Of a stretch of DNA of 64,000 nucleotides, positions 5,502-59,808 are shown piece after piece (position 1 is the stretch's first letter; each line of letters begins with the position of its first letter). Source of the DNA: Thiomicrorhabdus aquaedulcis (GTDB lineage Bacteria > Pseudomonadota > Gammaproteobacteria > Thiomicrospirales > Thiomicrospiraceae). Made by a program: the position numbers and the translations under genes. Where the stretch lies: positions 1,116,001 through 1,180,000 of the forward strand of contig NZ_AP018722.1 of the NCBI RefSeq assembly GCF_004001325.1. The letters are read 5' to 3'. A model generated the notes under the pieces. It was given only the letters and a program-made list of their open reading frames with translations, made no database searches and was not told the DNA's origin.

Positions 5502-6140
5502 ATGAAGTTTTTACCCACATTATTGGTTTTAAGTGTTTTGAGTGCAGCCACTTTATTAAATGGTTGCAGTGTCTTGGGTGGCATATCGGGCAGTGATAAA
5601 CCCGTCACAACATTTGTACTTTCCCCTGAATTTTCTAAGGCAGATAAGCTTACTGGGCAAACACCTTTGCCATATGCTTTAGTGTTAGCACCCGTGCGAA
5701 GCAACAGTTTTGATAATCGCGAATTTTTAGTGTTTGCAAAGCAAGACAATACTCGCGGCACTTATCAATATGCACAGTGGAGCGAAAAACCCAGCCGCCG
5801 CTTAGATGAACTCATTTTTAGTACATTAGAGCACTCTAACGTGTACCAAACTCTTGCTCCACTGAGTGCCGATGTAGTAGCGCAGCATTTATTGGTCAGC
5901 GAACTATTAGAGTTTTACCATGATGCAACCAACTCACCAGGCCTGGTAACAATAAAAATGCGGTTTAGTGTATACGATCAAACACAACATGCTTTGCTGG
6001 CGCGCCAAACGTTTACCACGCAGCACGGCCTTGACCAATTTAACGCACAGGGTGCTGCCAAAGCATTTAATGTTGCCGTGGGGCAGCAGTTGTATCAGTT
6101 AACAAAGTGGTTAGGCGATTGGCAACCTAAGTCCAATTAA
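5502..6140 (+). CDS. PqiC/YmbA-type ABC transport auxiliary lipoprotein
   Basis: The signal peptide has a lipobox, LLNGC (Cys near residue 22), and the mature part of about 190 residues fits the ABC-type transport auxiliary family (PqiC/YmbA), outer-membrane lipoproteins that partner MCE transporters. It starts one base after the MCE stop with GGAG upstream, so translation is probably coupled. Its presence instead of mlaC points to a Pqi-like arrangement built on a MlaE-type permease. A copy of the 12-bp palindrome lies at 5936-5947, read as SPGLV. Confidence 0.8.
   Translation: MKFLPTLLVLSVLSAATLLNGCSVLGGISGSDKPVTTFVLSPEFSKADKLTGQTPLPYALVLAPVRSNSFDNREFLVFAKQDNTRGTYQYAQWSEKPSRRLDELIFSTLEHSNVYQTLAPLSADVVAQHLLVSELLEFYHDATNSPGLVTIKMRFSVYDQTQHALLARQTFTTQHGLDQFNAQGAAKAFNVAVGQQLYQLTKWLGDWQPKSN
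5936..5947. repeat. Palindrome ACCAGGCCTGGT, exact copy 1
   Basis: Within the PqiC-like gene, read as PGLV. Confidence 0.9.
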
Positions 6141-6151
6141 ATACCTTTAAG

Positions 6152-6178
6152 CCTTTGAAAATTAATTATTATCAAAGG
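6152..6178 (+). terminator. Hairpin after the lipid-transport operon, possible weak terminator
   Basis: CCTTTGA and TCAAAGG form a 7-bp stem around a 13-base AT-rich loop, followed by TCTTCTTT. The U-tract is imperfect, so readthrough into the DUF2058 gene is plausible. Confidence 0.4.
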
Positions 6179-6230
6179 TCTTCTTTAATGTGTAAAAAGT
6201 TTTAACGATTTTAAAAGCGAGCGTAAAGTC

Positions 6231-6791
6231 ATGGCGGGTTCTTTATTTGATCAACTTAAAAAAGCCGGTTTAGTGGATGCACAAAAAGCCAAAAATATAA
6301 AAAAACAAAAGTATCAACAGGTGAAACAAAGTAAAGGTAAAAGCGCTGAATCAAGCCTGAGTTTAGCGGCACAACAGGTGGCACAAGTTGAGCAGCAAAA
6401 AGCCGAGCGTGATCGTCAACTTAATCTTGAGCGTCAGCAAGTGCAGCTTAAAAAAGCCCAAGCGGCTGAGTTGCGACAAATTATTGAATCCAATCGTGTA
6501 ACTCGTTATGAAGGTGAATTGCAGTACAGTTTTGCCGATGCACAAAGTGTTAAAACATTACAAGTAAGCACTAAGGTACGGCTACAATTGATTGCAGGTC
6601 AACTGCGCATTGCTAAATTTGACGAGGGATATGTTTTAATATCTGAAGAAGCGGCGCACAAAGTGCAGAGCCGAGATGAAACTGTGCTGATTGCCTTACC
6701 AAAAGATTCTGAAAGTGAGTTGCAAGGTGTAACACAAGAAGATCAGGAGTATTACGCGCGTTTTAAAATACCCGATGATTTGGTTTGGTAG
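6231..6791 (+). CDS. DUF2058 (YaiL-like) protein
   Basis: The 186-residue protein fits DUF2058, a gammaproteobacterial family of unknown function. It starts with MAGSLFDQLKKAGLVD and has a strongly charged Lys/Gln-rich helical region (about residues 15-85, probable coiled coil) and a compact C-terminal domain ending in KIPDDLVW. The N-terminal sequence and length match the family. No enzymatic motif is visible. It is separated from the upstream operon by a 90-bp gap with a hairpin. Confidence 0.75.
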   Translation: MAGSLFDQLKKAGLVDAQKAKNIKKQKYQQVKQSKGKSAESSLSLAAQQVAQVEQQKAERDRQLNLERQQVQLKKAQAAELRQIIESNRVTRYEGELQYSFADAQSVKTLQVSTKVRLQLIAGQLRIAKFDEGYVLISEEAAHKVQSRDETVLIALPKDSESELQGVTQEDQEYYARFKIPDDLVW

Positions 6792-6801
6792 GGTAATGTA
6801 A

Positions 6802-6843
6802 AAAAGCCTACTTGAGCGCGTCAATTAGGCTTAAGTAGGCTTG
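6802..6843 (-). terminator. Rho-independent terminator for sppA
   Basis: AAGCCTACTT and AAGTAGGCTT form a 10-bp stem. On the minus strand the stem is followed by TTTTTT, so it ends the sppA transcript. On the plus strand it lacks a T run and would act weakly on the DUF2058 gene. Confidence 0.7.
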
Positions 6844-6887
6844 TTAAGTGGACTTATTGAGTAGGCTGTTAAAAAAGGACTCTGTTT

Positions 6888-9832: not shown

Positions 9833-10020
9833 ATTGGTATTTGTAATGAATCTAAATAATGAATTCAAATAATGAACCCAAGCAGTTAGCATAACCAACA
9901 GTTTATATTTTATACAGCCTATAAGTCGTAGCCATAGGTTGTGTTAATATGAGAAAAATTTTTTTAATACATTTTGTACACACTATCGTAAAACCACACA
10001 TAACCTTAAAAGCCCCGTTT

Positions 10021-10593
10021 ATGAACTTAAAATCCTTACCCATGATGATGACGTGGTCACGCGTTGTTTTAATACCTGTTTTTATCATTCTTTATTATTC
10101 GCCACTTGAAGAAGCTCGTTTTTGGGCAGGCCTGGTCTTTATGATTGCCGCCATTACCGACTGGTTTGATGGCTACCTTGCGCGTAAATTGGGCTCTGAC
10201 AGCAAGTTAGGCGCATTTTTAGACCCTGTTGCCGACAAGTTGATAGTGGCCGCCGCGTTAATTGTAGTGGCGGCAGAGTACCATGATAATTTATGGGTAA
10301 TTGTTTCGGCGATAATTATTATGATGCGCGAAATTGGCATTTCTGCATTACGAGAGTGGATGGCTGAAAATAATGCTCGTGAAGTCGTGGCGGTTTCTAA
10401 ACTAGGTAAAATTAAAACAGCCTCACAGTTGGCCGCACTAACGTGGTTGTTGTACGGTGGCGAGCTTTGGGGCATTAATTGGGGTGCGTTAGGGTTTCCA
10501 ATGCTCTACTTTGCCGCCACACTGACTTTGATTACCTGGATACAATACACTAAGGCCGCTATGCCTGAGTTAATTCGATCAACAAAATCATAA
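10021..10593 (+). CDS. pgsA: CDP-diacylglycerol--glycerol-3-phosphate phosphatidyltransferase
   Basis: It makes phosphatidylglycerol phosphate, the committed step to phosphatidylglycerol and cardiolipin, at the inner membrane. The CDP-alcohol phosphatidyltransferase motif DG-x2-AR-x8-G-x3-D-x3-D is complete (DWFDGYLAR ... GAFLDPVADK). I start at the ATG at 10021, giving MNLKSLPMMMTWSRV and 190 residues, the usual length. An in-frame ATG at 9949 would add 24 atypical residues. The uvrC-pgsA-tRNA order is typical of gammaproteobacteria. Confidence 0.93.
   Translation: MNLKSLPMMMTWSRVVLIPVFIILYYSPLEEARFWAGLVFMIAAITDWFDGYLARKLGSDSKLGAFLDPVADKLIVAAALIVVAAEYHDNLWVIVSAIIIMMREIGISALREWMAENNAREVVAVSKLGKIKTASQLAALTWLLYGGELWGINWGALGFPMLYFAATLTLITWIQYTKAAMPELIRSTKS
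10125..10136. repeat. Palindrome variant GGCAGGCCTGGT
   Basis: In pgsA, read as AGLV; two positions differ from ACCAGGCCTGGT. Confidence 0.6.
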
Positions 10594-10802: not shown

Positions 10803-10804
10803 AA

Positions 10805-12499: not shown

Positions 12500-12536
12500 A
12501 AAAAACCCACTCGGTCTTACCAGGCCTGGTGGGTTT
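12500..12536 (-). terminator. Terminator of purB containing the palindrome
   Basis: AAACCCAC (12503-12510) pairs with GTGGGTTT (12529-12536), and on the minus strand a run of six T follows. The 12-bp palindrome occupies most of the loop and one stem side. Confidence 0.8.
12519..12530. repeat. Palindrome ACCAGGCCTGGT, exact copy 2
   Basis: Intergenic, inside the purB terminator hairpin. Confidence 0.9.
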
Positions 12537-12579: not shown

Positions 12580-13998
<1,419 letters not shown>

Positions 13999-15126: not shown

Positions 15127-15167
15127 AAAACCACCCGCGCCTAATGACCAGGCCTGGTGGTTTTTTT
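15127..15167 (+). terminator. Rho-independent terminator of hemJ with the palindrome in the loop
   Basis: AAAACCACC pairs with GGTGGTTTT followed by TTT. The palindrome at 15147-15158 sits in the loop and 3' arm. Confidence 0.85.
15147..15158. repeat. Palindrome ACCAGGCCTGGT, exact copy 3
   Basis: Intergenic, inside the hemJ terminator; context TGACCAGGCCTGGTGG. Confidence 0.9.
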
Positions 15168-19139: not shown

Positions 19140-20693
19140 TTGAAAGCAGACACCCATCAAACTACGTTTACCTCTGAACTATTGTCCCCCGCTGGCACCA
19201 TTAAAAACATGGAGTACGCCTTTGCTTACGGCGCAGACGCTGTGTACGCTGGTCAACCACGATACAGTTTACGGGTGCGTAATAATGAGTTTGATGAAGA
19301 AACCCTAGAAAAAGGCATTAAGCGCGCCCACGCCTTAGGCAAAAAATTCTACGTGGTGAGCAATATCGCCGCCCACAATTCCAAAATTAAAACCTACATG
19401 AAAGACATCGCGCCCATTATTGCGATGCAGCCTGACGCGTTAATTATGTCTGATCCTGGGCTGATTTCGATGGTGCACGAAGCCTATCCCGAGCAAGAGA
19501 TTCATCTTTCGGTGCAATCCAACGCAGTAAACTGGGCAACGGTTAAGTTTTGGTATAAGCAGGGCGTAAGCCGCGTGGTGTTGTCGCGTGAATTGTCGAT
19601 GCAAGAAATTCGCGAAATTCGCGACGCCGTGCCCGAAATGGAAATTGAAGTTTTTGTGCACGGTGCTTTGTGCATTGCCTATTCTGGGCGCTGCTTATTG
19701 TCGGGCTACATTAATAAGCGTGACGCTAACCAAGGCACGTGCACCAACGCCTGTCGTTGGAATTACAACACTTATGATGCTAAAGAGGACGTTTCGGGTG
19801 ATATTGTCGGGGTTGAAAAAATCACCGTGGCCAATATCAGCAACATCACCGATTTAACCGAGTTGACGGGATCGGCCTTTGCGGCGAGTTTTGAAGACGA
19901 TATTGAGCCTACATTAGGGGTGGGCAAACCCACCGATAAAATGATGTTGCTGGAAGAAGAGGGCAGGCCTGGTGAGTTTATGCCGGCGTTTGAAGATGAG
20001 CATGGCACGTACATTATGAACTCAAAAGATTTACGCGCGGTTGAGTTGATTCCCGAAATGGTGCAAATGGGCATTCACTCGCTAAAGATTGAAGGGCGCA
20101 CAAAATCACATTACTACGTAGCACGCACCGCGCAAGTCTATCGCAAAGCCATTGACGATGCGGCGGCCGGCAAGCCGTTTGACACCAATTTATTAGCCGA
20201 CCTAGAAAGCTTGGCCAGTCGTGGCTACACCGAAGGCTTTTTGCGTCGCCATGTGCATTCCGAATACCAAAACTACGAGTACGGTGTATCCAAATCCGAT
20301 CGCCAGCGTTTTGTGGGTGAAGTGGTGGCCGTGGGTGAGCGCGATGGTCAAGAGTATTTGGAAATTGATGTTAAAAACAAGTTTTGTGTGGGCGACTCCA
20401 TTGAGATTATGAGCCCGGTGGGCAATATAACGCTTGTATTGCCCGAAATGCGCGATAAACACGATGCTCCAGTAGATTGCGCGTTGGGTTCTGGCTGGTT
20501 CGTGCGCATTCCCAATCCATTTAAAAATGTGGCGCCAGAGGTATTAATGTTTGGATTGGTGATGCGAAACGAGTCGTGGGGTGGCGATGTAAAACGCGAT
20601 GCGGCCGCTAAAAAAGTCAAAGTCGAGCAAGACGCCAAAGACCTAGAAATTAGAGCGGCGGCCAAGCAACAGCCCAACGCGTTGCACTCTTAG
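19140..20693 (+). CDS. trhP: TrhP (YegQ) tRNA 5-hydroxyuridine synthase, U32-peptidase family
   Basis: U32-family protein matching YegQ/TrhP, which uses prephenate to hydroxylate U34 of several tRNAs. Motifs are LLSPAGTIKNMEYAFAYGADAVYAG at the start, EVFVHGALCIAYSGRC and the downstream cysteines in QGTCTNACRW, which can hold an Fe-S cluster. I start at TTG 19140 because TAGGAG lies 8 bp upstream and no ATG is well placed; this gives 517 residues. That is longer than E. coli YegQ, partly because of an acidic insertion around residues 240-290. yfhL follows 10 bp later. The palindrome variant at 19962-19973 falls in the insertion. Confidence 0.9.
   Translation: MKADTHQTTFTSELLSPAGTIKNMEYAFAYGADAVYAGQPRYSLRVRNNEFDEETLEKGIKRAHALGKKFYVVSNIAAHNSKIKTYMKDIAPIIAMQPDALIMSDPGLISMVHEAYPEQEIHLSVQSNAVNWATVKFWYKQGVSRVVLSRELSMQEIREIRDAVPEMEIEVFVHGALCIAYSGRCLLSGYINKRDANQGTCTNACRWNYNTYDAKEDVSGDIVGVEKITVANISNITDLTELTGSAFAASFEDDIEPTLGVGKPTDKMMLLEEEGRPGEFMPAFEDEHGTYIMNSKDLRAVELIPEMVQMGIHSLKIEGRTKSHYYVARTAQVYRKAIDDAAAGKPFDTNLLADLESLASRGYTEGFLRRHVHSEYQNYEYGVSKSDRQRFVGEVVAVGERDGQEYLEIDVKNKFCVGDSIEIMSPVGNITLVLPEMRDKHDAPVDCALGSGWFVRIPNPFKNVAPEVLMFGLVMRNESWGGDVKRDAAAKKVKVEQDAKDLEIRAAAKQQPNALHS
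19962..19973. repeat. Palindrome variant GGCAGGCCTGGT
   Basis: In trhP, read GRPGE, within the family-variable acidic insertion. Confidence 0.6.
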
Positions 20694-21097: not shown

Positions 21098-21955
21098 ATG
21101 ACCCAAACCCTTAAACTGGCACTCGCCAGTGTGCTAACCGGCTGTTTATGGCTGTTACCTAGCATGGCGCAGAGCAGTGCATTCCTTCAGAGCAGTCCAT
21201 TAACTCAGTCCGACTATCAGTGGATGGGGCAGCGAATTTATCAAAATGAGTGCGCCGGCAAGCCCGAATATTTAACCCATTGGGGCGCGCGGGAGGATTT
21301 TCCATCGTTTGGTATTGGGCACTTTATTTGGTATCCCGCGCAGGTTCCGCAAACCTTTGTGGCCACGTTTGAACCCATGGTGCGTTTTGTGGCGCAAGAA
21401 GTTGCCCCACCCGCGTGGTTGCATACACAATTACAAAACGGTCAACTGTTTGCGCCTTGGAACAGTAAAAAGCAGTTTGACCAGGCCTGGTCAGGTGTGC
21501 AAATGCAACAATTGCGCGATTGGTTAGCACGTACGCACGCACCGCAAGCGCGTTTTATCGTAGAGCAGTTTTTTGTACGCTGGCAGGCGGCGTTGCAGGG
21601 GTTAAGCAATCAAGAACAGTTGCGTTTAAACGCCCGTTTAACAACGCTTATGGCGTTTAAACAAGGGCAGTTTGCGGTGATTGATTATTTTAACTTTAAG
21701 GGTGTGGGGCAAAACCCGCAAGAGCAGTATCAGGGACAAAGTTGGGGATTGATTTCGGTGATTAACGATCTCCCAGAAACGGTTTTTACACCCATTTCAG
21801 GTCAATCAGCCAATCAAACGGCGCTGGTGAATGCATTCATAACGTCGGCTAAAGCGCGTTTGGCACTTCGAGCGTCGTTAGCACCTCCGGCTCGTCAAGA
21901 AGCCAAGTGGCTAAAAGGCTGGTACAGTCGCCTGGATGGATACGCGCAACCATGA
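21098..21955 (+). CDS. Conserved periplasmic protein of unknown function
   Basis: The 285-residue protein has a signal peptide (to about residue 26) and a soluble domain with NECAGKPEYLTHWGAREDFPS and FGIGHFIWYP, a conserved-looking aromatic block, and a second region FFNFKGVGQNP-like DYFNFKGVGQNP. I recall such sequences as uncharacterised proteobacterial proteins and see no catalytic motif I can name. Its stop overlaps the next start (ATGA), so it is translationally coupled to the prenyltransferase. The palindrome at 21480 is read DQAWSG. Confidence 0.65.
   Translation: MTQTLKLALASVLTGCLWLLPSMAQSSAFLQSSPLTQSDYQWMGQRIYQNECAGKPEYLTHWGAREDFPSFGIGHFIWYPAQVPQTFVATFEPMVRFVAQEVAPPAWLHTQLQNGQLFAPWNSKKQFDQAWSGVQMQQLRDWLARTHAPQARFIVEQFFVRWQAALQGLSNQEQLRLNARLTTLMAFKQGQFAVIDYFNFKGVGQNPQEQYQGQSWGLISVINDLPETVFTPISGQSANQTALVNAFITSAKARLALRASLAPPARQEAKWLKGWYSRLDGYAQP
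21480..21491. repeat. Palindrome ACCAGGCCTGGT, exact copy 4
   Basis: Read as DQAWS; 14-bp extended form GACCAGGCCTGGTC. Confidence 0.9.
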
Positions 21956-22875
21956 CAGAGCATTCTAAAACTATGACCGCATTTAAAACCTTTAAAACGG
22001 TGGTGCAAACGGCTCGGCCTGCTTTTTTATGGTTAACGGTAGCGGTGGTTTGTTTGGGTACCGCCATTGCGCTGTTCCAGGGGGCTGTGTGGTCAGCCAG
22101 TTGGTTTGCGGTGCTTTTAGTGACAGCTCTGTTGGCGCATGTGTTGGTGAATATGCTCAACGAATATCAAGACTTTCAGTCGGGGTTGGATGATCTTACC
22201 CAAAAAACGCCGTTTAGTGGTGGCAGTGGCGCTTTGCCGCAGCATCCGCAAGCCGCTCCAGTGGTGCGTAACACATTGTGGGCTCTTGGCCTGGTGTTTA
22301 TGGCGTTGGGCGCTTACATTGTGGCTCACATTGGCTGGGCTATTTTGCCGTTTGGGTTATTGGGCGTTGCGCTGATTGTGACCTATACGGCGTTTATTAC
22401 CCGACAACCCTGGCTGTGTTTGCTGGCTCCGGGTTTGGCGTTTGGGCCTTTAATGGTGATGGGGACGGCTTACGCTTGGAGTGGTGTTTTTTCCGGTTTG
22501 GCGTTGGCGCTGTCGATGGTGCCATTTTTTTTAGTCAATAATCTGTTATTGCTTAATCAGTTTCCCGATAGGGAAGCTGATCAAAAAGTAGGTCGTTTTA
22601 ATATTTTAATGTTGCTGGGCTTGCCCTTTGCCAGTCGTTTATTTGTGGTTTTTTTGGGGCTTGCCTATCTTAGTTTAGGCTTAAGCGTTGCAGTCTACTC
22701 GTTGCCAATGGGTGTTTATTTTGGGTTTTTAACGGCATTGCTGGCTCTGCCTATGGCTTGGTTGGTGCTAAAGTTTTATGCAAACCTAGAGAAAATGCTG
22801 CCCGCGATGGCAATGAATGTCATAATTAATATTTTTTTACCGTTAGTTATTTCAGCAGGCCTGGTTTGGCAATAA
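21952..22875 (+). CDS. MenA/UbiA-family prenyltransferase
   Basis: The 307-residue membrane protein has about eight helices and the two aspartate-rich UbiA-superfamily motifs, NMLNEYQDFQSGLD and NQFPDREADQKVGR. The second motif and overall layout are closest to MenA-type 1,4-dihydroxy-2-naphthoate prenyltransferases rather than UbiA. No other menaquinone genes are in the window, so the substrate is open. The ATG at 21952 overlaps the previous stop. Confidence 0.8.
   Translation: MTEHSKTMTAFKTFKTVVQTARPAFLWLTVAVVCLGTAIALFQGAVWSASWFAVLLVTALLAHVLVNMLNEYQDFQSGLDDLTQKTPFSGGSGALPQHPQAAPVVRNTLWALGLVFMALGAYIVAHIGWAILPFGLLGVALIVTYTAFITRQPWLCLLAPGLAFGPLMVMGTAYAWSGVFSGLALALSMVPFFLVNNLLLLNQFPDREADQKVGRFNILMLLGLPFASRLFVVFLGLAYLSLGLSVAVYSLPMGVYFGFLTALLALPMAWLVLKFYANLEKMLPAMAMNVIINIFLPLVISAGLVWQ
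22854..22865. repeat. Palindrome variant AGCAGGCCTGGT
   Basis: One mismatch; read AGLV at the end of the prenyltransferase gene. Confidence 0.65.
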
Positions 22876-25750: not shown

Positions 25751-27307
25751 TTGAAAAGACGCACTTTATTACAAGCAGGCCTGGTAAGTTTAACCAGCGC
25801 ATCTTGGTTGGGCTTAAACGGCTGCAGTAATTCGGCCGATCGCTTAGACCCCAAAGTCATTCGCGCGGGTGTTACCACCCGCGTGCAAATGCTGGATCCT
25901 CGCAAAGCCACCGACGCATTGTCCAGTCGCATTAATCGCTTAATGTATCGCCAATTGATTGATTTTGATGCGGCGTTTCAACCCGTGCCCGATTTGGCGA
26001 CGTGGGAGACTATCAGCCCGATTCATTATCGGTTTAGTTTGCAAAGCTTGCCCCTGTTTCATCACGGTAAACCCTTAAGTGCCACGGATGTGGCGGCCAC
26101 CTATTTAAGTGTGCTTGATCCGGCGTTTGGTTCGGCACATTACGGCTCGCTCAACAACATTAGCCGCATTGACGTGGTGGATGAACGCACCCTAGATTTT
26201 TATTTGCATAAGCCCGATGCGCTGTTTGTCGGGCGTTTGGTGATGGGTATTTTACCGGCCGATTTAATCGCCGCAGGGCACCTGTTTCAACAGCAGCCGA
26301 TTGGTTGTGGTGCGTGCCAATTTGTGTCAATGAACGAACAAAAGTTGGTGCTAAAACGGCGCAATGATGAGGTTTTACTGGAGTTTATACCGGTAAAAGA
26401 CGCCACCACACGGGTGCTTAAACTGCAAAAAGGCGAGCTGGATTGGGTGCAGAATGATTTGTCGCCTGAATTGGTGCAGTATTGCCAACGCCAAGCTAAT
26501 TTGGCGGTGCAATGGCAAGTGGGCACCAGTTTTGGCTATTTAGGTTTTAATTTTGAAGACCCCTTATTGGCTCAACTTCCATTACGTCAGGCTTTGGCCT
26601 TGGGCATTGATCGTCAAGCCATTGTCAATGCGCTGTTTGATGGTCACGCGCGTTTGGCCGGTGGGTTATTGGTGCCCGAACACTGGAGTGGTGCGCCCAG
26701 TTTACGCGGGTTTGCTTATGATTCAGAGCGGGCTAAGGCGTTGCTAAAGCAGGTAGTGATTCCACCAGGCCTGGTTAAGTTAAATCAACAAAATCAACCG
26801 ATTATTGAACTAAGTTATAAAACATCCAACGACCCCACACGAATTCGTTTGGCGACGATTTACCAGTCGCAACTTAAAAAAATTGGCATTCATTTAAACA
26901 TTCAAAGCTACGATTGGGGCACGTTTTACAACGACATTAAACAAGGGCGTTTTCAGCTTTTTAGTCTGGCGTGGGTGGGCATTAAAAGCCCCGATATTTT
27001 TCAATATGCGTTTGATTCTAATGCGATTCCACCGTTGGGCGCTAATCGTGGGCGTTACCGTGATGCGGTGACCGACCAGTTAATTTTGCAGGCCACGCAA
27101 ACCCAAGACTTGTCGGAACAAGCGGCACTTTATCAGCAACTGCAAGCGCGGTTACAAGACAATTTGGCGCATTTGCCCTTGTGGTTTGAAGACCAGTATT
27201 GTGTAACACGCCATGGTGTTACGGGCTACACGGTGTATTCGGACGGCCGTATGGATGGACTGTTGCAAGTGCAAAAACAGCCCGCGCCTGTTAAGAGTTC
27301 AGCGTAA
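25751..27307 (+). CDS. Family 5 oligopeptide/dipeptide-binding lipoprotein
   Basis: The 518-residue solute-binding protein (SBP_bac_5 type, DppA/OppA/MppA-like) has a lipobox near residue 26 (LNGC). The N-terminal start is TTG at 25751, MKRRTLLQAGLVSL. Conserved elements include the DPRKATDALSSRI stretch and LALGIDRQAIVNALF. It binds short peptides in the periplasm for the two permeases downstream. The stop TAATG overlaps the transpeptidase start. The palindrome variant at 25774 and exact copy at 26764 fall in this gene. Confidence 0.88.
   Translation: MKRRTLLQAGLVSLTSASWLGLNGCSNSADRLDPKVIRAGVTTRVQMLDPRKATDALSSRINRLMYRQLIDFDAAFQPVPDLATWETISPIHYRFSLQSLPLFHHGKPLSATDVAATYLSVLDPAFGSAHYGSLNNISRIDVVDERTLDFYLHKPDALFVGRLVMGILPADLIAAGHLFQQQPIGCGACQFVSMNEQKLVLKRRNDEVLLEFIPVKDATTRVLKLQKGELDWVQNDLSPELVQYCQRQANLAVQWQVGTSFGYLGFNFEDPLLAQLPLRQALALGIDRQAIVNALFDGHARLAGGLLVPEHWSGAPSLRGFAYDSERAKALLKQVVIPPGLVKLNQQNQPIIELSYKTSNDPTRIRLATIYQSQLKKIGIHLNIQSYDWGTFYNDIKQGRFQLFSLAWVGIKSPDIFQYAFDSNAIPPLGANRGRYRDAVTDQLILQATQTQDLSEQAALYQQLQARLQDNLAHLPLWFEDQYCVTRHGVTGYTVYSDGRMDGLLQVQKQPAPVKSSA
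25774..25785. repeat. Palindrome variant AGCAGGCCTGGT
   Basis: Read AGLV in the signal peptide of the peptide-binding protein. Confidence 0.65.
26764..26775. repeat. Palindrome ACCAGGCCTGGT, exact copy 5
   Basis: Read PPGLVK in the peptide-binding protein. Confidence 0.9.
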
Positions 27308-29649: not shown

Positions 29650-29661
29650 ACCAGGCCTGGT
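29650..29661. repeat. Palindrome ACCAGGCCTGGT, exact copy 8
   Basis: Intergenic, 26 bp after the DppC-like stop; context TGACCAGGCCTGGTTAA. Confidence 0.9.
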
Positions 29662-40741: not shown

Positions 40742-40753
40742 ACCAGGCCTGGT
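40742..40753. repeat. Palindrome ACCAGGCCTGGT, exact copy 10
   Basis: Its last two bases are the first two of the tilS GTG start codon (40752-40754). Confidence 0.9.
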
Positions 40754-42263
40754 GAACACGTTGCTTTCAAAATTTATTCGTGACTTTATCCAAGACACAG
40801 TCCAACAACTTCCAATAGATGCACGTGTGTGCGTTGGGTTTAGCGGTGGGCTAGACTCCACTGTTTTATTGCACTTGCTAAGTCAGGAACCCGAAATAAA
40901 ACAGCGGTTGTACGCTTGCTATATTCACCATGGATTGCATGTTGAAGCGTCGGTTTGGCAAGCGCATTGTTACCAAGTGTGTAAAACCCTTAATGTGCCG
41001 TTTAGTGCTGTCGCAATTCAGCTGGAAGCGCAGCCAAAAATGGGCATTGAGGCGGCGGCTCGCACTTTGCGTTACAGAGCCTTGGTTGAGCAATTAAGCG
41101 GTGAGCACGATGTGCTTTTAACCGGTCATCACCAAAGAGATCAAGCTGAAACCGTGTTGCTTAATATGCTGCGCGGCAGTGGCGTAAAAGGTTTGGCGGG
41201 GATGGCATTGTCTCGAAATCTTACCATTGGCACGCGCACCGTTAAGTTACATCGTCCTTTATTAAATGCACCTTTTAGCGCGCTGCAAGAGTTTGCACAA
41301 GCCCATAAGCTAACTTGGGTTGAAGACTCTTCTAACCAGTCCAATGATTTTAAGCGTAATTTTGTGCGAAACCAGGTGTTGCCTTTGTTGCATCAACAAT
41401 GGCCAAGCTCTCAAAATACCCTGGCGCGAACGGCGCAAAACTTGCAAGAAAGTAGCGCATTATTAGACCGTTTAGCCAAAATTGATTTAAACCAGGCCTG
41501 GTCAAATCCTTTTTATATTGATTTAAGCGTCTTGTCACAGGCTGAAACTGCTAATGGCACTCTAGACTGGGCTGGACAAAAAAACGCTCTTCGGTTTTGG
41601 TTTTGGACGCATCACCGTATTATTTTGCTGTCGCATCATTATGAGTGGATTAACCGTGTGATGAGTGCTCAAGGGGATGGAAAAAAGAACGCGTTTAGCT
41701 GCGTTTTATCTCAAGGTGAATTGCGATTTTATCAAACTCGATTGTATTTTTTGTCAACTGCAAGACTGTCGAGCAACAAATTAAGTTTAAGCTTAGCGCA
41801 AGCGTTACAGCGATTAAATCGTCCTGTTTTTTTACAAAACCACGAGAGTGATGTGCTTACCGGAGATATTGTTGAAAATGAGTATGCGTTTTACCTAAGC
41901 AAATCACAGTGGTTAGCTGGGAATGAATCATCTGATGAGTTAATGACAAATTTGTCTATTCTCGATTTAGACAGTGTTCGCGCCCAGCCTGATTTAGCAG
42001 AGCAGTTAAATACGCACAGATTAAAGCGATTTTTTCAAACACAGTGCATTCCAGTATGGGAACGTTCGGCTTGGCCTGTTTTGGTTATGAATCAATGCGT
42101 TATATCGGTTTTAGGATGTAAAAAGTCGCTTAAATCAGGTAGCTTTAAGTGTACAGACCCCAATTTTAAAGTGTTAAACGAGGGTTTTTTGCATGATCAG
42201 ACCCAACGCGTAATCCTTAAATTAAATCAACATGAGCGTTTGCAATTGCTGACGATTGATTGA
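40752..42263 (+). CDS. tilS: tRNA(Ile)-lysidine synthase
   Basis: TilS puts lysine on C34 of tRNA-Ile2 so that AUA is read correctly. The 503-residue protein has the PP-loop FSGGLDSTVLL, HHGLHVEAS, GHHQRDQAET and the NxxxRNFVRNQVLP block, then the long C-terminal RNA-binding domain. The GTG at 40752 lies in the palindrome; the next Met is far downstream, so this start is likely. It carries a second exact palindrome at 41491. Confidence 0.92.
   Translation: MNTLLSKFIRDFIQDTVQQLPIDARVCVGFSGGLDSTVLLHLLSQEPEIKQRLYACYIHHGLHVEASVWQAHCYQVCKTLNVPFSAVAIQLEAQPKMGIEAAARTLRYRALVEQLSGEHDVLLTGHHQRDQAETVLLNMLRGSGVKGLAGMALSRNLTIGTRTVKLHRPLLNAPFSALQEFAQAHKLTWVEDSSNQSNDFKRNFVRNQVLPLLHQQWPSSQNTLARTAQNLQESSALLDRLAKIDLNQAWSNPFYIDLSVLSQAETANGTLDWAGQKNALRFWFWTHHRIILLSHHYEWINRVMSAQGDGKKNAFSCVLSQGELRFYQTRLYFLSTARLSSNKLSLSLAQALQRLNRPVFLQNHESDVLTGDIVENEYAFYLSKSQWLAGNESSDELMTNLSILDLDSVRAQPDLAEQLNTHRLKRFFQTQCIPVWERSAWPVLVMNQCVISVLGCKKSLKSGSFKCTDPNFKVLNEGFLHDQTQRVILKLNQHERLQLLTID
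41491..41502. repeat. Palindrome ACCAGGCCTGGT, exact copy 11
   Basis: Read NQAWSN in tilS. Confidence 0.9.
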
Positions 42264-48357: not shown

Positions 48358-49004
48358 CATCGCAACGAACTCGCAATCGTTTTGTTGAGCGTTTGATTGA
48401 AAAAGGCATTTCACACCCAAGGTTATTGGAGGTGATGCGTTGTGTGCCACGGCATATTTTTTTAGACGAAGCCTTAGCTTCTCGGGCTTATGAAGATACG
48501 GCTTTGCCGATTGGTTTTGGTCAAACTATTTCTCAACCATGGGTGGTCGCTAAAATGACTCAGTGGTTGTTAAATGGACAAGATGACCAGGCCTGGTCAG
48601 GCTTTAAAAAAGTGCTAGAGATTGGAACGGGGTCGGGTTATCAAACGGCTATTTTGTCGCTGTTGTCAGATCAGGTGTTTAGCCTTGAGCGCATTCCGTT
48701 GTTGTCGACTAAGGCACAGGGCGTGTTAGAGAAACTAACGCTCGATAATATTACTTTTGGTATTAGTGATGGTCATTGGGGCTGGAATGATTATGCCCCT
48801 TTTGATGCTATTATTTCGGCCGCAGCGCCCGAGCAATTACCGGCTTCGTTGATTACACAGTTGAAAATAGGGGGGCGTTTAATTATCCCCATTGGTCAAC
48901 AACAACAACGATTATACGGTTACCAAAAAACGCTCACGGGTTTGCAAGAAACCTGTTTAGCCGAGGTGCTATTTGTGCCCATGAAATCTGGAGTAGAAGT
49001 GTGA
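48354..49004 (+). CDS. pcm: Protein-L-isoaspartate O-methyltransferase
   Basis: Pcm repairs isoaspartyl residues in aged proteins. The 216-residue sequence has the family start MTSQRTRNRFVERL, PIGFGQTISQPWVVAKM and the SAM motif VLEIGTGSGYQTAIL. The ATG at 48354 has AAGGA six bases upstream. An ATG six bases earlier is too close to the same site. The stop overlaps the next GTG start (GTGA). A palindrome at 48586 is read DQAWSG. Confidence 0.94.
   Translation: MTSQRTRNRFVERLIEKGISHPRLLEVMRCVPRHIFLDEALASRAYEDTALPIGFGQTISQPWVVAKMTQWLLNGQDDQAWSGFKKVLEIGTGSGYQTAILSLLSDQVFSLERIPLLSTKAQGVLEKLTLDNITFGISDGHWGWNDYAPFDAIISAAAPEQLPASLITQLKIGGRLIIPIGQQQQRLYGYQKTLTGLQETCLAEVLFVPMKSGVEV
48586..48597. repeat. 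Palindrome ACCAGGCCTGGT, exact copy 12
   Basis: Read DQAWSG in pcm; extended GACCAGGCCTGGTC. Confidence 0.9.
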
Positions 49005-50477: not shown

Positions 50478-50894
50478 CCTCTTCTTCTTTTCGCGATTAT
50501 CTATCGGAGCTGCGCCCAAGTTTTGCGGCATAATCAGCGCCAATACAACATCTCGATCTTCTGATGTGAGTACATTATAGGTTCGACAAGCGGCATCGTT
50601 GGCCATTACTTCTAAACCACACTGGTTCTGTGCGCAATAGGCAAATAATTGAGGTGCAGGAAATGTTTGTTTATCGCCTGTTCCTAAAATAATTACTTCG
50701 GGTTTTTGTGCTAAGAGCGGGTCTAATAGTTGAGGGGTAAGTTGCTCAATGGCAGTACACGGCCAATCGTCATGCGTAGTGTGTTGAGTAATAAAAAAAG
50801 AGTTATAAAACGTTAGGTTATTTACTTTAACCAGGCCTGGTTGATAGTGTTTAACTGCAAATACATTTGAATCACGGTGTTCGGTAAATTTCAT
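50421..50894 (-). CDS. Mth938-like/DUF498 domain protein
   Basis: The 157-residue frame matches the Mth938/Xcc1710 family (PEVIILGTGDKQTFPAP). The family is usually 120-130 residues, and the last 25 residues here (KKKRLLFKQG...) are an unlikely tail overlapping nlpD by 57 bp. Adding one base to the A4 run (T4 at 50521-50524) would end the protein at 50497 as ...MPQKLGRSSDR (132 residues) and remove the overlap. Function unknown. A palindrome at 50830 is read PGLV. Confidence 0.75.
   Translation of the reverse strand: MKFTEHRDSNVFAVKHYQPGLVKVNNLTFYNSFFITQHTTHDDWPCTAIEQLTPQLLDPLLAQKPEVIILGTGDKQTFPAPQLFAYCAQNQCGLEVMANDAACRTYNVLTSEDRDVVLALIMPQNLGAAPIDNREKKKRLLFKQGVNRHFSPLITRF
50830..50841. repeat. 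Palindrome ACCAGGCCTGGT, exact copy 13
   Basis: Read QPGLVK in the Mth938-like gene (minus strand). Confidence 0.9.
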
Positions 50895-52406: not shown

Positions 52407-53707
52407 GCACAGTAAAAATTGGTTTATTGGGGTTTGGTACCGTCGGTGGTGGAGCAGTTGATATTTTACAAACCACCTTGCCCGAAATTGAACGTCGTTT
52501 AGGGCACAGCATTGAGATTGTGGCTGTGGCCGTTCGCGATTTAAATCGTCCGCGTAACGTAAAATTAAATGGGATTACTTTAACAGACGACCCCATGAGC
52601 GTGGTTACACACCCAGACGTTGAAATTGTGGTTGAGCTTATGGGTGGCACCACTTTGGCAAAAACTCTGTTAGAAACCGCCATAAAAGCTGGTAAACACG
52701 TGGTTACAGCCAACAAAGCGCTTATTGCTGAGCACGGCAATGGTTTGTTTGCTTTGGCGCAGCAGCATAATGTCATGGTTCAATACGAAGCGGCCGTGGC
52801 CGGTGGTGTGCCCATTATTAAGGCGTTGCGTGAAGGCTTGGCCGCTAATAAAATTGAGTGGTTGGCCGGTATTATTAATGGCACCGGAAACTACATTTTA
52901 ACCGAAATGAAAAAGCCTGGAGCTGACTTTGCCAAAGTGCTTAACGTGGCGCAAGAGTTAGGGTATGCAGAAGCAGACCCAACCTTTGATGTAGAGGGTA
53001 TTGATGCGGCGCATAAGTTAACCATTTTAGCCTCAATTGCTTTTGGTATAGAGCTGCAATTTAACAAAGTTTATACAGAGGGAATAAGTAAAATCAGTGC
53101 AAACGATATTCGCTTTGCACAGCAGATGGGCTATGAAATCAAACACTTAGGATTAGCCAGTCGAACCTCTGATGGCTTCGCTTTGCGCGTGCATCCCGCC
53201 ATGGTGCCCAAATCGGTTTTGTTAGCGCAAGTAGACGGAGTAATGAACGCGGTGATGGTTCACGGCAGTCATGTTGGCTCAACAATGTATTACGGACCAG
53301 GCGCTGGGGCTGGGCCTACAGCAAGTGCAGTGGTCGCCGACCTTATTGATGTTATTCGTGCGCGCCATCAACCTATTGTTGACCGAGTGCCTGCTTTAGG
53401 GTTTAACACTCTGCAATCTGCGTCGGTCGTGAGCATTGAAGCGACTAATTCGGCCTTTTATGTGCGTTGCACTGTGCTAGATCACTCTGGTGCACTGGCT
53501 AAAATTACCAGTGTATTTGCCGATTTTGATATTAGCATTGAGCACGTGCATCAAGAGCCTTCAACCGATAACGCTGACCAGGCCTGGTTAGCTGTGACGA
53601 CCGATGTGGTAAGTGAAGCCAAGTTTAACCAAGCGTTGGCAAGTTTGCAAAGCTTGGCAGACATAAGCGGGGATGTAATGCGCATTCGTATTGCCTCTGT
53701 GCATTAA
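52403..53707 (+). CDS. hom: Homoserine dehydrogenase
   Basis: Homoserine dehydrogenase for threonine and methionine synthesis. The 434-residue protein has the NAD(P) motif [11 protein letters not shown], the catalytic region [11 protein letters not shown] and a C-terminal ACT domain ([17 protein letters not shown]). A palindrome at 53577 is read DQAWLA inside the ACT domain. Confidence 0.96.
53577..53588. repeat. Palindrome ACCAGGCCTGGT, exact copy 14
   Basis: Read DQAWLA in hom. Confidence 0.9.
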
Positions 53708-54691: not shown

Positions 54692-54696
54692 TAGAT

Positions 54697-56139: not shown

Positions 56140-56193
56140 TTACCTTGAAGCCTTTTTAGGTAAAAGGTTTCACATTAGTATTAGGTGAGCAGT

Positions 56194-57135
56194 ATGTTAT
56201 CAAGAGTAGCCGAAAGAGTTTACTGGTTAGCACGTTATATAGAACGAGTTGAAAACACCGCACGGTTAGCGCGAGTGCAGTCGCAATTAATGTTTGATTT
56301 GCCAAGAGCGGTAAAATTAAGTTGGTTTACGCTGGTAGAAATCACCAGCAGTGAGACGTATTTTGAAGAGAATTACGACGCCAAAACCGAAAAAAACTGC
56401 ATGGCCATGTTATTAAGTGACCGAAACAATGGCAATTCATTAATGAGCTCACTTTGGTGGGCGCGCGAAAACACGCGAACCACCCGCGATATTTTACCGC
56501 GTGAAGCGTGGTTACACATTAACGAGCTTTACTTGCATGTTAAAACGCATCAAGACGATTTTTTAACCCGCTCTAAACGCAATCAGCTGCTAGAGTACAT
56601 TATTAAATCCTGCCAGGCCTGGTCAGGCATGTTGTCGAGCACTATGAGCCAAAACTATACTTATCGCTTTATAAAGTTGGGCATGAGTATCGAAAGAGCG
56701 GACATGACCTCACGCATTTTGGATGTGGGTGGTCTATTTTTGGCTCAAGACGATGTGGTGGACGATGAATATCAAACTCACAGTATTTTATGGGCAAATC
56801 TTCTAAAGTCGGCCAGCGGGTATTTTATGTATCGACAGCACGTGCAAACTGAAATAAATGGCCAGCAAGTGGTGGACTTTTTAATTCACGACCCAGAATT
56901 TGCGCGCTCTATTCGTTTTTGCGTAAATGTTATGAAGCAAGTTACCGAGCGTTTACCAGCCAGTCAGCCTATAAACAGCGCGTTAGAGCAGTTTTTAATA
57001 CGCTTAGAAGACACAGAACGTTTTGATGTGGGCTCGATTGCATTGCACGACTATTTAGATCAGTTACAACAGGATTTTTCGGTCTTACACAATTTGTGTT
57101 ATGAGCTGTGGTTTAATCCCAAATTGGTGGCGTAA
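56194..57135 (+). CDS. Alpha-E domain protein (DUF403)
   Basis: The 313-residue all-alpha protein starts MLSRVAERVYWLARYIERVENTARLARV, the conserved Alpha-E motif, and contains TRDILPREAWLHINELY and ERADMTSRILDVG. It is the standard partner of circularly permuted ATP-grasp proteins; its biochemical role is not known. The ATG at 56194 is preceded by AGGTGAGC. The palindrome variant at 56612 is read CQAWSG. Confidence 0.88.
   Translation: MLSRVAERVYWLARYIERVENTARLARVQSQLMFDLPRAVKLSWFTLVEITSSETYFEENYDAKTEKNCMAMLLSDRNNGNSLMSSLWWARENTRTTRDILPREAWLHINELYLHVKTHQDDFLTRSKRNQLLEYIIKSCQAWSGMLSSTMSQNYTYRFIKLGMSIERADMTSRILDVGGLFLAQDDVVDDEYQTHSILWANLLKSASGYFMYRQHVQTEINGQQVVDFLIHDPEFARSIRFCVNVMKQVTERLPASQPINSALEQFLIRLEDTERFDVGSIALHDYLDQLQQDFSVLHNLCYELWFNPKLVA
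56612..56623. repeat. Palindrome variant GCCAGGCCTGGT
   Basis: One mismatch; read CQAWSG in the Alpha-E gene. Confidence 0.65.
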
Positions 57136-58270: not shown

Positions 58271-58300
58271 GTTACTTAAAAATCTCTCAAGGAGCACTTC

Positions 58301-58543
58301 ATGGCGAATTTAAGGGCTCAAACAACTCAATTTAATCAAAATCCCTTACATTGCGTTGTTGTGGGGGGCGAAATGCTGGCCGCTTTAGCGGTCAAAAAAT
58401 GGATTGAAGCCGGTGCTCTGGTAACCGTTTTGGCACCCCATAAAGTGATTGCCGCGTCTAGTGATTTATATGTAAATCAGGCGGTTGAGCGTTATTGTCA
58501 ACATCATTCCCTGCAACTAGAGCAAGTTTATGATGCCTTGTAA
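58301..58543 (+). CDS. Mini-Rossmann protein resembling the N-terminus of siroheme-type dehydrogenases
   Basis: The 80-residue protein has VVVGGEMLAALAVKKWIEAGALVTVLAP, which looks like the first beta-alpha-beta unit of CysG/PrecorRin-2 dehydrogenase-type proteins, but then ends. AAGGAG precedes the ATG and it is 30 bp after the metallopeptidase gene, so it is likely the last cassette gene. Whether it binds a nucleotide alone is unknown. Confidence 0.55.
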   Translation: MANLRAQTTQFNQNPLHCVVVGGEMLAALAVKKWIEAGALVTVLAPHKVIAASSDLYVNQAVERYCQHHSLQLEQVYDAL

Positions 58544-58547
58544 ATCG

Positions 58548-59068
58548 TTACAGTGTCTTATAAGCCTCAATCCATGCCGGATCAAAACTAATCTGTTCAA
58601 GCGATAATCCTAACGCCCCCATTTGTGTTTCAGTAGCGTGCTTTTCAGCCATTAAATCTACCAATGCGTGATTGTTGTCATCGAGCTTATGCATTTGCTC
58701 TAGTCCTAGATGATAAAACCTCAATATTTGTAAAGCCTCCGTATTATTGACCTCGGCTTGTTCTTTAACTTGACGTAATACATTGCTAATATGCATTAAA
58801 TTGCGTTTTAATTGCCAGCCATAGATGGCTTCTTTCATCCAAGGTTTGTTAGCAAAAATTGTTTAACAATAAATCCGGTGAGAGCCAAGCCTAATATTGC
58901 TCCCATTAAATTTAGTACCAATGGGCTGTTTGAATATTCGCCTAAATAAGTTACAAAGCCGTATGAAAACACAAAACCAATTACGATGAAAATTCCCATC
59001 ATTATGAGTGTGGCTTTACGCGTTTGGCGACGATAATGTTTGGGGTCGATGGCTTGAATAGTAAACAT
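58548..59068 (-). pseudogene. DUF3087 membrane protein broken by one homopolymer frameshift
   Basis: Two overlapping frames (59068-58835 and 58838-58548) are halves of one protein. The first half has MFTIQAIDPKHYRRQTRKA and two helices; the second starts in mid-protein at MKEAIYGWQLKRNLMHIS. Adding one base to the A run at 58854-58858 joins them as VKQFFANKPWMKEAIYG, a 173-residue DUF3087 protein. Function unknown. Probably a sequencing error. Confidence 0.82.
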
Positions 59069-59153
59069 AATGAGCAACTCACTTTTAAAAATTTTTAAAA
59101 AAACTATTTTACGGGGTTGCTGGCGCAATTACCATATTGATACGATCTTTGAA

Positions 59154-59170
59154 CGTGCAAAGGTCTCTGA
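59154..59170. repeat. Solo half-element CGTGCAAAGGTCTCTGA
   Basis: Right-end form of the recurrent repeat, 24 bp upstream of phnN. Confidence 0.55.
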
Positions 59171-59193
59171 TATAAACACAAAGAGCATAACGT

Positions 59194-59808
59194 ATGAATA
59201 CTACCAGGCCTGGTCATAATGAAATGATATTAAAATCGTCCGTAAATAGTTTTAAAAAAGGACGGTTGTTTTACGTACTAGGCGCCTCTGGGGTGGGTAA
59301 AGACAGTTTATTACGCTATGCACGGCCTTTTTTAAGTCAAAGCAACGTGTTATTTGCGCATCGTTACATTACCAGGGCTGTTCAAATAAACGATGAAAAT
59401 CATGTTTCACTTAGCGAAGATGAGTTTTTAAATCGTCAACAGAAAGGTTGTTTTATGTTTGCCTGGCACAGTCATAATTTACATTACGGCATTGGCATTG
59501 AGGTACAAGATTGGCTAAATTTAGGCTGTGATGTGGTCATAAATGGATCGCGAGAATATTTTAACCACGCCATTGAGCGTTATCCAGAGTTAATTCCTGT
59601 ACTCATCAGCGCTTCTTTAACTATTTTGGAGCAACGACTTATTGCACGAGGCCGCGAATCATTAGAACAAATACATCAGCGGCTACAAGGCGCATTATCC
59701 TATCAAAATCTAAGCCATCCTAAATTGATCACCATCAACAATAACAATTTACTGGAGCAGGCGGGTAAGCAATTGGTTGAAGTGTTGCTAGGCAAATGTG
59801 AGTCTTAA
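59194..59808 (+). CDS. phnN: Ribose 1,5-bisphosphate phosphokinase PhnN
   Basis: The 204-residue protein has the Walker A GASGVGKDSLL (about residue 31) and a guanylate-kinase-like fold with RYITRAV and HSHNLHYGI. PhnN makes PRPP from ribose 1,5-bisphosphate in phosphonate degradation. No other phn genes are adjacent, so this copy is an orphan. The first ATG at 59194 is used; the palindrome lies in codons 4-7. Confidence 0.85.
   Translation: MNTTRPGHNEMILKSSVNSFKKGRLFYVLGASGVGKDSLLRYARPFLSQSNVLFAHRYITRAVQINDENHVSLSEDEFLNRQQKGCFMFAWHSHNLHYGIGIEVQDWLNLGCDVVINGSREYFNHAIERYPELIPVLISASLTILEQRLIARGRESLEQIHQRLQGALSYQNLSHPKLITINNNNLLEQAGKQLVEVLLGKCES
59203..59214. repeat. Palindrome ACCAGGCCTGGT, exact copy 15
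   Basis: Read TRPG in codons 4-7 of phnN, the third reading frame. Confidence 0.9.

What the first reader, a model, noticed from the sequence alone, without database searches (positions are those of the whole stretch)
5936..59214. ACCAGGCCTGGT: a highly iterated 12-bp palindrome scattered across the window
The exact 12-mer occurs 15 times (5936, 12519, 15147, 21480, 26764, 27333, 28930, 29650, 38565, 40742, 41491, 48586, 50830, 53577, 59203), with at least eight close variants. Chance expectation is 64000/4^12, about 0.004. Several copies extend to TGACCAGGCCTGGTCA or TTAACCAGGCCTGGTTAA. Copies sit in coding frames (mostly QAW or PGLV, with TRPG once), in terminator loops (12519, 15147), just after a gene (29650) and over the tilS start. 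None lie in pyrG, eno, kdsA or the last 4 kb. This resembles HIP1 of cyanobacteria but with a different core. It could be a methylation, chromosome-organisation or uptake site. I know of no report of this motif as an iterated palindrome, but could not search.
Basis: partly seen in the sequence, partly recalled or inferred. Interest (0 to 1): 0.85.

Follow-up and report, generated by a model that had tools for sequence, protein, structure and literature searches.

The report
A palindromic DNA-uptake-like genome watermark
A group of sulfur-oxidising bacteria has its chromosomes stamped hundreds of times with a short DNA word whose spelling differs between species, which looks like a "take up DNA from your own kind" signal of a sort described so far in only two other bacterial families.

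Summary
ACCAGGCCTGGT occurs 15 times in the window and 718 times in the 2.54-Mb genome, reversed control 0. It is one spelling of a wider motif. Of 62 family genomes, 32 have at least 200 copies of the core CAGGCCTG. Six others have mutually exclusive related words: ACCGGCCGGT (1025 copies in one genome), ACCCGGCCTGTT (two genomes) and CTGCCAGGYTGG (three); the last two are asymmetric with one A/T tract. The other 24 have none of these. None of 365 genomes of other families is rich in it. Own-genome copies are 3.6-fold enriched outside ORFs, mostly near gene 3' ends, and 5.7-fold rarer on a plasmid-like contig. Sites outlast their flanks between species. This resembles the DNA uptake sequences of Neisseriaceae and Pasteurellaceae; I judge uptake most likely (0.55). 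Against it: uptake untested, no receptor found, and five near-complete carriers lack PilT without clear motif decay in the four sampled. The main rival is HIP1-like, methylation-linked maintenance; methyltransferases were not searched. If true, this is a third uptake-sequence lineage, palindromic in most carriers.

The parts
5936..5947 (.). ACCAGGCCTGGT, in ORF 5502-6140(+), reads PGLV
10127..10134 (.). core CAGGCCTG only, in ORF 9949-10593(+)
12519..12530 (.). ACCAGGCCTGGT, intergenic, 55 bp from the 3' end of ORF 12580-13989(-)
15147..15158 (.). ACCAGGCCTGGT, intergenic, 66 bp from the 3' end of ORF 14635-15087(+)
19964..19971 (.). core CAGGCCTG only, in ORF 19044-20693(+)
21480..21491 (.). 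ACCAGGCCTGGT inside TGACCAGGCCTGGTCA, in ORF 21098-21955(+), reads QAW
22856..22863 (.). core CAGGCCTG (1-mismatch 12-mer at 22854), in ORF 21907-22875(+)
25776..25783 (.). core CAGGCCTG (1-mismatch 12-mer at 25774), in ORF 25751-27307(+)
26764..26775 (.). ACCAGGCCTGGT, in ORF 25751-27307(+), reads PGLV
27333..27344 (.). ACCAGGCCTGGT, in ORF 27307-27831(+), reads PGLV
28594..28601 (.). core CAGGCCTG only, in ORF 27828-28751(+)
28930..28941 (.). ACCAGGCCTGGT, in ORF 28809-29624(+), reads QAW
29650..29661 (.). ACCAGGCCTGGT, intergenic, 32 bp past the end of ORF 28809-29624(+)
34720..34727 (.). core CAGGCCTG (1-mismatch 12-mer at 34718), in ORF 34113-34925(+)
37152..37159 (.). core CAGGCCTG only, in ORF 36986-38713(+)
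38565..38576 (.). ACCAGGCCTGGT, in ORF 36986-38713(+), reads QAW
40742..40753 (.).
41491..41502 (.). ACCAGGCCTGGT, in ORF 40752-42263(+), reads QAW
48586..48597 (.). ACCAGGCCTGGT inside TGACCAGGCCTGGTCA, in ORF 48333-49004(+), reads QAW
50830..50841 (.). ACCAGGCCTGGT, in ORF 50421-50894(-), reads PGLV
53577..53588 (.). ACCAGGCCTGGT, in ORF 52403-53707(+), reads QAW
56614..56621 (.). core CAGGCCTG (1-mismatch 12-mer at 56612), in ORF 56185-57135(+)
59203..59214 (.). ACCAGGCCTGGT, in ORF 59194-59808(+), reads TRPG

Best explanation
ACCAGGCCTGGT is the palindromic 'dialect' of a DNA-uptake-sequence-like watermark in the order of Thiomicrospira, Hydrogenovibrio and Thiomicrorhabdus. Shown: a short core, CAGGCCTG, with outer bases that differ between species and A/T-biased flanks about one helical turn from its centre, is present hundreds of times per genome. 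It is kept at more orthologous places than its flanks would predict, and it is replaced wholesale by related spellings in some lineages. Inferred: a surface DNA receptor of the competence machinery, probably a minor pilin-like protein that reads one half-site (in most spellings CCTG, three bases, A or G, then a T-tract), binds this word in extracellular DNA. Fragments that carry it are taken up and recombined preferentially. Alleles with a good copy therefore spread by transformation, and the word accumulates where it is tolerated: codons that allow it, gene 3' ends, terminators. The palindrome would be two head-to-head half-sites sharing one core; asymmetric dialects keep only one full half.
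For: Abundance: 718 copies, control 0. Mutually exclusive spellings by whole-genome counts in 62 genomes. T-tract at +5 to +8 after the core, clear in G023, G041, G046 and G015. Asymmetric dialects with a one-sided A/T tract. Inverted pairs at offsets of 25-34 bp, T-tracts outward: 6 pairs among 56 sites in G022, 2 among 17 in G007, 2 among 18 in G008, 0 among 15 in G013. 59 of 135 own-genome sites outside ORFs against 16 expected, 44 of the 59 nearest a gene 3' end (p 5e-20). 5 copies on the plasmid-like contig against 28.3 expected. The 12-mer is more even than Poisson (P 0.0014 in 20-kb and in 5-kb bins). Sites present in both species of a pair: 31 of 59, against 286 of 1128 flanking 8-mers (nominal p 1.5e-5, flanking 8-mers overlap). 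Asymmetric dialects nested among palindrome carriers on a 20-genome tree. ComEC in 36 of 38 carriers, the two misses being fragmented drafts. Published DUS/USS share dialects, inverted terminator pairs, intergenic positions and, for USS, AT-rich tracts (PMC12616744 introduction; PMC3630211 passages; PMC1852404 passages).
Against: No uptake or transformation was tested, and the searches made found no report of it in this order. No receptor was found: one pseudopilin tested has relatives in 56 of 62 genomes, in 37 of 38 carriers and 19 of 24 non-carriers, and the five pilin-like proteins of its locus are acidic (pI 4.1-4.7), unlike the electropositive ComP and FimT described in PMC12616744. ComEC and PilT are also in most non-carriers (20 of 24; 22 of 24), so they do not track the motif. 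Five carriers at 99-100% completeness (G010, G015, G052, G053, G060) have no PilT match at E 1e-60, yet the four sampled show no clear motif decay (20 kb each). Published DUS/USS are not palindromes. In the own genome 1-mismatch neighbours of the core are not elevated (115 against 126 expected), cleaner than an ordinary balance of gain and decay would suggest. The T-tract is weak in the own genome (T 0.43 at +7) and in the pooled g6 sample. Core counts alone are not significantly even (P 0.13 in 20-kb bins). Retention is weak in some pairs: 0 of 2 in G023/G047, 4 of 13 in G031/G032, and 2 of 5 pattern occurrences in the asymmetric pair G007/G008.
Confidence: 0.55

Rival explanations
1. HIP1-like maintenance: a cognate (orphan) DNA methyltransferase plus a methylation-dependent mismatch-repair bias creates and preserves the palindrome, and alternative spellings follow replacement of the methyltransferase.
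For: An iterated palindrome at HIP-like density, with replacement by another GC-rich palindrome in a relative (G026), as published for cyanobacteria (PMC4390886, abstract and passages). Deviants of the 12-mer lie mainly in its four outer positions (41 of 47). GGCC is over-represented overall in the own genome, 2064 against 1243 expected from composition, more than the 198 cores explain. No clear decay in PilT-less carriers.
Against: Two dialect groups are asymmetric, and one (CTGCCAGGYTGG) lacks GGCC, so no single palindromic methylation target unites them. AGGCCT outside CAGGCCTG (80) is not above the composition expectation (92 for all AGGCCT), and 1-mismatch neighbours of the core are at background. 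Concentration at gene 3' ends, A/T tracts and rarity on the second contig are not explained by it. The CCWGG (Dcm/Vsr) sites in the 12-mer are absent from GCAGGCCTGC-type sites. Methyltransferase genes were not searched.
Confidence: 0.2
2. Binding site of a chromosomal DNA-binding protein (nucleoid, segregation or recombination factor) spread evenly over the chromosome.
For: Two-fold symmetric site with A/T-biased flanks, as expected for a dimer. The 12-mer is more evenly spaced than random. Rare on the plasmid-like contig.
Against: The site families of this kind that I recall (matS, SlmA sites, Noc sites) number tens and are regionally confined; here each of 20 stretches around the chromosome has 3-8 copies. 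Asymmetric dialects fit a dimer poorly. Whole-genome replacement of spelling among congeners is hard to explain.
Confidence: 0.12
3. A recombination or conversion hot-spot, or a selfish spreading sequence, propagated by biased repair inside the cell rather than by uptake.
For: Accumulation and retention of exact words without long conserved flanks. No clear decay in PilT-less carriers.
Against: Balanced strand counts in the asymmetric G022 dialect (240 forward, 242 reverse), unlike Chi. No repeated element seen around the listed copies.
Confidence: 0.08
4. Transcription terminators or RNA hairpins.
For: 44 of 59 intergenic copies are nearest a gene 3' end. Intergenic copies have more complementary flanks (3.64 of 8, coding 2.92, random 1.99). 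Inverted pairs in asymmetric dialects.
Against: 76 of 135 copies are inside ORFs, and termination does not need one exact shared word.
Confidence: 0.05

Closest known systems
Uptake signal sequence (USS) of Pasteurellaceae
   Same: Short core repeated hundreds of times; AT-rich tracts at helical-turn distances; dialects within a family; inverted pairs forming terminators (PMC12616744 introduction; PMC1852404 passages).
   Different: Unrelated core sequence; most carriers here have a symmetric (palindromic) motif; no receptor known; uptake untested here.
DNA uptake sequence (DUS) of Neisseriaceae
   Same: Dialects that follow phylogeny with a constant inner core; intergenic and terminator positions (PMC3630211 passages).
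   Different: DUS is a continuous asymmetric motif of up to about 13 nt, with the minor pilin ComP as receptor (PMC12616744 introduction). No receptor was identified here.
HIP1 and alternative HIPs of cyanobacteria
   Same: A highly iterated palindrome with alternative palindromes in some relatives (PMC4390886 abstract and passages).
   Different: HIP1 is an 8-mer tied to CGATCG and GATC methyltransferases. Here there are A/T-tract flanks, asymmetric dialects, 3'-end enrichment and no enrichment of the inner 6-mer by itself.

Membership tests
DNA uptake sequence (DUS/USS) | Hundreds to thousands of copies of a short word, far above expectation | tested here: met
   718 copies, control 0; 32 of 62 genomes with at least 200 CAGGCCTG
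DNA uptake sequence (DUS/USS) | Dialects within a family with a conserved inner core | tested here: met
   Dialects. The conserved part is looser than in DUS/USS: ACCGGCCGGT has no CCTG, and CTGCCAGGYTGG shares only one half with CAGGCCTG
DNA uptake sequence (DUS/USS) | Inverted pairs or terminator association, intergenic enrichment | tested here: met
   no pairs in the G013 sample
DNA uptake sequence (DUS/USS) | Competence machinery present (ComEC, type IV pilus with PilT) | tested here: inconclusive
   ComEC in 36 of 38 carriers; PilT in 30 of 38, absent in five carriers at 99-100% completeness (E 1e-60); DprA, ComEA and PilQ not searched
DNA uptake sequence (DUS/USS) | DNA with the motif is taken up preferentially | not testable with these tools
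   needs a transformation or uptake assay
DNA uptake sequence (DUS/USS) | A specific surface receptor (ComP-like minor pilin) | tested here: inconclusive
   The own genome has 10 N_methyl matches at E 0.1; the one pseudopilin searched family-wide is in carriers and non-carriers; the five pilin-like proteins of its locus are acidic; ComP and FimT families not searched
HIP1-type highly iterated palindrome | Palindromic in all carriers | tested here: not met
   Asymmetric words in G022 and G036 and in G007, G008, G013; logos for four of the five (not G036)
HIP1-type highly iterated palindrome | Cognate methyltransferase present in the genome | not tested
HIP1-type highly iterated palindrome | 1-nt deviants biased to the outermost bases | tested here: inconclusive
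   true for the 12-mer's outer four positions, not for the 8-mer core

The most novel reading that the evidence does not exclude
A third, independently evolved DNA-uptake-sequence system, found in one order of sulfur-oxidising bacteria. It is palindromic in most carriers, has changed to asymmetric dialects at two places of the tree, and may work through a receptor and pilus that do not need PilT.
Probability: 0.5. Interest if true: 0.9.

Novelty: new variant of a known kind. Interest (0 to 1): 0.8.

Why it matters
[quoted passage not shown] A third lineage with at least four spellings, palindromic-to-asymmetric changes and apparent losses among relatives would be a natural experiment on how uptake specificity evolves and how a whole genome is re-watermarked, and would give fresh material for finding receptors. 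If the function proves not to be uptake, it is a new class of dialect-bearing genome watermark. Either way the question can be tested in strains that have been cultured, such as Hydrogenovibrio marinus.

Tried and rejected
Dcm/Vsr origin (the 12-mer contains CCAGG and CCTGG): rejected because GCAGGCCTGC-type sites lack them. Insertion family: rejected because long flanks are not shared. Chi- or KOPS-like oriented motif: rejected because counts are balanced on the two strands in the asymmetric G022 dialect. Strict chromosome-region motif (matS or Noc type, recalled): rejected because copies occur in each of 20 sampled stretches. A hidden asymmetric signal around the own genome's palindrome: log-likelihood gain 83 against 53-77 in eight simulated symmetric sets, so at most weak asymmetry. 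Motif decay in PilT-less carriers: not clear (17 against 12.8 expected in G010+G015, 11 against 14.2 in G052+G060). The pseudopilin as a carrier-specific receptor: no presence/absence link. Phage evidence: TGACCAGGCCTGGT is in 85 IMG/VR stretches, of which the 80 that I counted hold at most 3 exact 12-mers. An INPHARED search with a short probe found nothing, and a plasmid search with 20 kb of the 96.8-kb second contig found nothing. The order-level search returned the same 62 genomes as the family search and added nothing. A further dialect may exist in genus g5: AAAAAGTCGGGGACCCC at 5 dispersed places in 80 kb of G017, not followed up.
Full report
Observation. The 8-base core CAGGCCTG occurs 23 times in the window. 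The genome (2,537,035 bases, two contigs) has 718 copies of the 12-mer and none of its reversed control, and 1106 of the core, control 1. Two details need correction: TGACCAGGCCTGGTCA occurs twice in the window, and TTAACCAGGCCTGGTTAA does not occur among the 15 copies.

Anatomy in the own genome. In 464 kb (20 stretches plus the window; 129 copies of the 12-mer) the neighbouring bases are biased: A at +2 in 79%, and A/T-rich positions at +3, +4 and +9 to +12. Single-base deviants of the 12-mer fall mostly on its outer four positions (41 of 47). The core is nearly all-or-none: 198 copies against 4.8 expected, while its single-base neighbours are at background. Of 135 copies in 484 kb, 76 lie in ORFs of at least 100 aa against 119 expected; 59 lie outside, 44 of them nearest a gene 3' end. 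Intergenic copies have more self-complementary flanks than coding ones, consistent with use in terminators. The spacing of the first 100 copies listed is near random (CV 0.90). Counts per 20 kb (3 to 8) are more even than Poisson for the 12-mer (P 0.0014) but not significantly so for the core (P 0.13). The 96.8-kb second contig, which has pilus- and DNA-processing-like genes when read by eye, has 5 copies against 28.3 expected.

Dialects. Counting single patterns over the 62 genomes held of the family (the order search returned the same 62): ACCAGGCCTGGT ranges from 0 to 718. CAGGCCTG reaches at least 200 in 32 genomes: 15 of 32 in the own genus g1, 7 of 11 in g3, 9 of 9 in g6, 1 of 1 in g7, none of the 9 in g2, g4 and g5; the other 30 have at most 74. 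ACCGGCCGGT has 1025 copies in G026 and at most 15 elsewhere. ACCCGGCCTGTT has 240+242 in G022 and 138+137 in G036, and at most 5+3 elsewhere. CTGCCAGGYTGG has 103+127, 106+129 and 125+135 in G007, G008 and G013, and at most 1+1 elsewhere. So 38 of 62 carry some spelling and 24 have none of the four words counted. Eight of the 24 were sampled. Word discovery in 40-80 kb each of G024, G028, G030, G042 and G051 showed no clear dispersed motif of this kind. G002 (27 kb) showed a few ACCCGGCCTGTT-like words, G017 (80 kb) showed another word, and G029 was only pattern-counted in 20 kb. Within the CAGGCCTG carriers there are outer-base variants, for example AGCAGGCCTGCTGA followed by a T-tract in G041 and CAGGCCTGCTCATTTT-like sites in G023.

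The shared half-site. Flank compositions suggest CCTG, then mostly G/C/T and T (or C), a free base, A or G, a free base, and a T-tract at +5 to +8 after the core. The T-tract is clear in G023, G041, G046 and G015. G026, whose word has no CCTG, has a T-tract at a similar distance from its centre. The tract is A/T rather than T in the small G006+G009 sample, and it is weak in the own genome (T 0.43 at +7) and in the pooled g6 sample. The asymmetric spellings keep only one such half: ACCCGGCCTGTTgAgTTTttt (56 sites, called by CGGCCTGTT, in 180 kb of G022) and, reversed, CCCAGCCTGGCAGATTTT or CCCAACCTGGCAGATTTT (17, 18 and 15 sites in G007, G008 and G013). They occur as close inverted pairs with the T-tracts outward: 6, 2, 2 and 0 pairs respectively. 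A tree of 20 genomes from four neighbouring proteins places G022 inside a CAGGCCTG clade and G007/G008 beside G015, so the asymmetric spellings look derived from palindromic ones; G026 is nearest two non-carriers. Supports at other nodes go down to 0.53.

Conservation. In aligned 20-kb regions of eight species pairs (73-92% identity; G031 and G032 each in two pairs), 31 of 59 places with the core in either species have it in both, against 286 of 1128 flanking 8-mers (nominal Fisher p 1.5e-5). Without the two closest pairs it is 18 of 38 against 90 of 708. Pairs differ: 5 of 6 in G006/G009, 4 of 5 in G012/G011, 4 of 13 in G031/G032, 0 of 2 in G023/G047. In the asymmetric pair G007/G008, 2 of 5 pattern occurrences are identical in the partner. 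Local alignments favour matching sites and the flanking 8-mers overlap, so this supports rather than decides.

Distribution. In a class-wide sample of 369 genomes, CAGGCCTGNTNA is abundant only in G000 (679+688) and G053 (279+256). The 365 genomes of other families have at most 20 on the forward and 18 on the reverse strand. G008 is probably Hydrogenovibrio marinus MH-110, because its contig length, 2,491,293, equals the published genome size (PMC6797543, abstract in the search listing). Genus g3 is then Hydrogenovibrio, and by my own knowledge of the group the order is that of Thiomicrospira and Thiomicrorhabdus; the own genome's species was not identified.

What it most likely does. Whole-genome dialects, a short core with A/T tracts, terminator pairs, 3'-end enrichment, rarity on the plasmid-like contig and even coverage together match the DUS of Neisseriaceae and the USS of Pasteurellaceae as described in PMC12616744 (introduction read), PMC3630211 (passages), PMC7811141 (passages) and PMC1852404 (passages). 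I therefore commit to uptake specificity as the most likely function. The receptor, the uptake bias and the competence of these bacteria are inferred, not shown.

Against it. ComEC is present in 36 of 38 carriers but also in 20 of 24 non-carriers. PilT (E 1e-60) is absent in 8 of 38 carriers, five of them 99-100% complete, and in 2 of 24 non-carriers. A review regards retraction as required for uptake through type IV pili, while noting that no PilT/U homologue is known for com and Flp filaments (PMC6370729 passages). In 20-kb samples of four of the five, the motif shows no clear decay. The own genome has only 10 N-methyl pilin matches at E 0.1: four in a type II secretion-like cluster, a lone 170-aa pilin, three in a cluster of large pseudopilins and two weak ones on the second contig. 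One pseudopilin of that cluster has relatives in 56 of 62 genomes, and the pilin-like proteins of that locus are acidic. So no receptor candidate emerges, and either uptake here is PilT-independent or the function lies elsewhere. The HIP1-like rival was not fully tested, because methyltransferases were not searched, and GGCC itself is over-represented.

Literature. 'ACCAGGCCTGGT' was found in no paper of the library, and 'DNA uptake sequence' with 'Thiomicrospira' in none. A search on uptake sequence, natural competence and four names of this group listed 20 of 211 papers, and none of the 20 holds 'uptake sequence' or 'natural competence'. A term search of the main text of two genome papers of this group found 'competence' in neither. 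Most subscription-journal papers and all preprints are outside the library, so an unseen report is possible.

Noticed in passing
G017 stretches L191:17681, L193:7546, L193:12977, L193:19413, L194:11592: AAAAAGTCGGGGACCCC occurs at five dispersed places in 80 kb of a genus-g5 genome otherwise without the motif; an A-tract plus a GC-rich core, perhaps a further dialect.
   Followed up: partly
window 61181-61240: Perfect 8-bp tandem repeat TAAAAAGC, 7.5 copies, just past the 3' end of ORF 61257-62585(-).
   Followed up: no
L096:7737-12567 (own genome C1 about 1,837,700-1,842,600): Cluster of four large pilin-like proteins sharing a PCPD(T/S) motif by eye, next to a response regulator; one has glycine/aspartate-rich repeats. 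Relatives of one member occur in 56 of 62 family genomes, often several per genome.
   Followed up: partly
L356/L357 alignment (G012/G011): One site is intact in G011 and split by 25 extra bases in G012, so a copy was either created by a deletion or broken by an insertion.
   Followed up: no
G008 L054/L055 and G051 L065, L079-L081: Longer words repeated about 18 and 98 times that look like repetitive coding sequence; they hamper word discovery there.
   Followed up: no
L250 (IMG/VR contig from 3300033553): An 11-kb contig listed as viral with three ACCAGGCCTGGT copies; four other motif-bearing contigs come from the same sample, perhaps host DNA or a phage of this order.
   Followed up: no
L098 (second contig of the own genome, 26-36 kb): Pilin-like, ATPase-like, single-strand-binding-like and primase-like ORFs, suggesting a plasmid with its own pilus (read by eye).
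   Followed up: no
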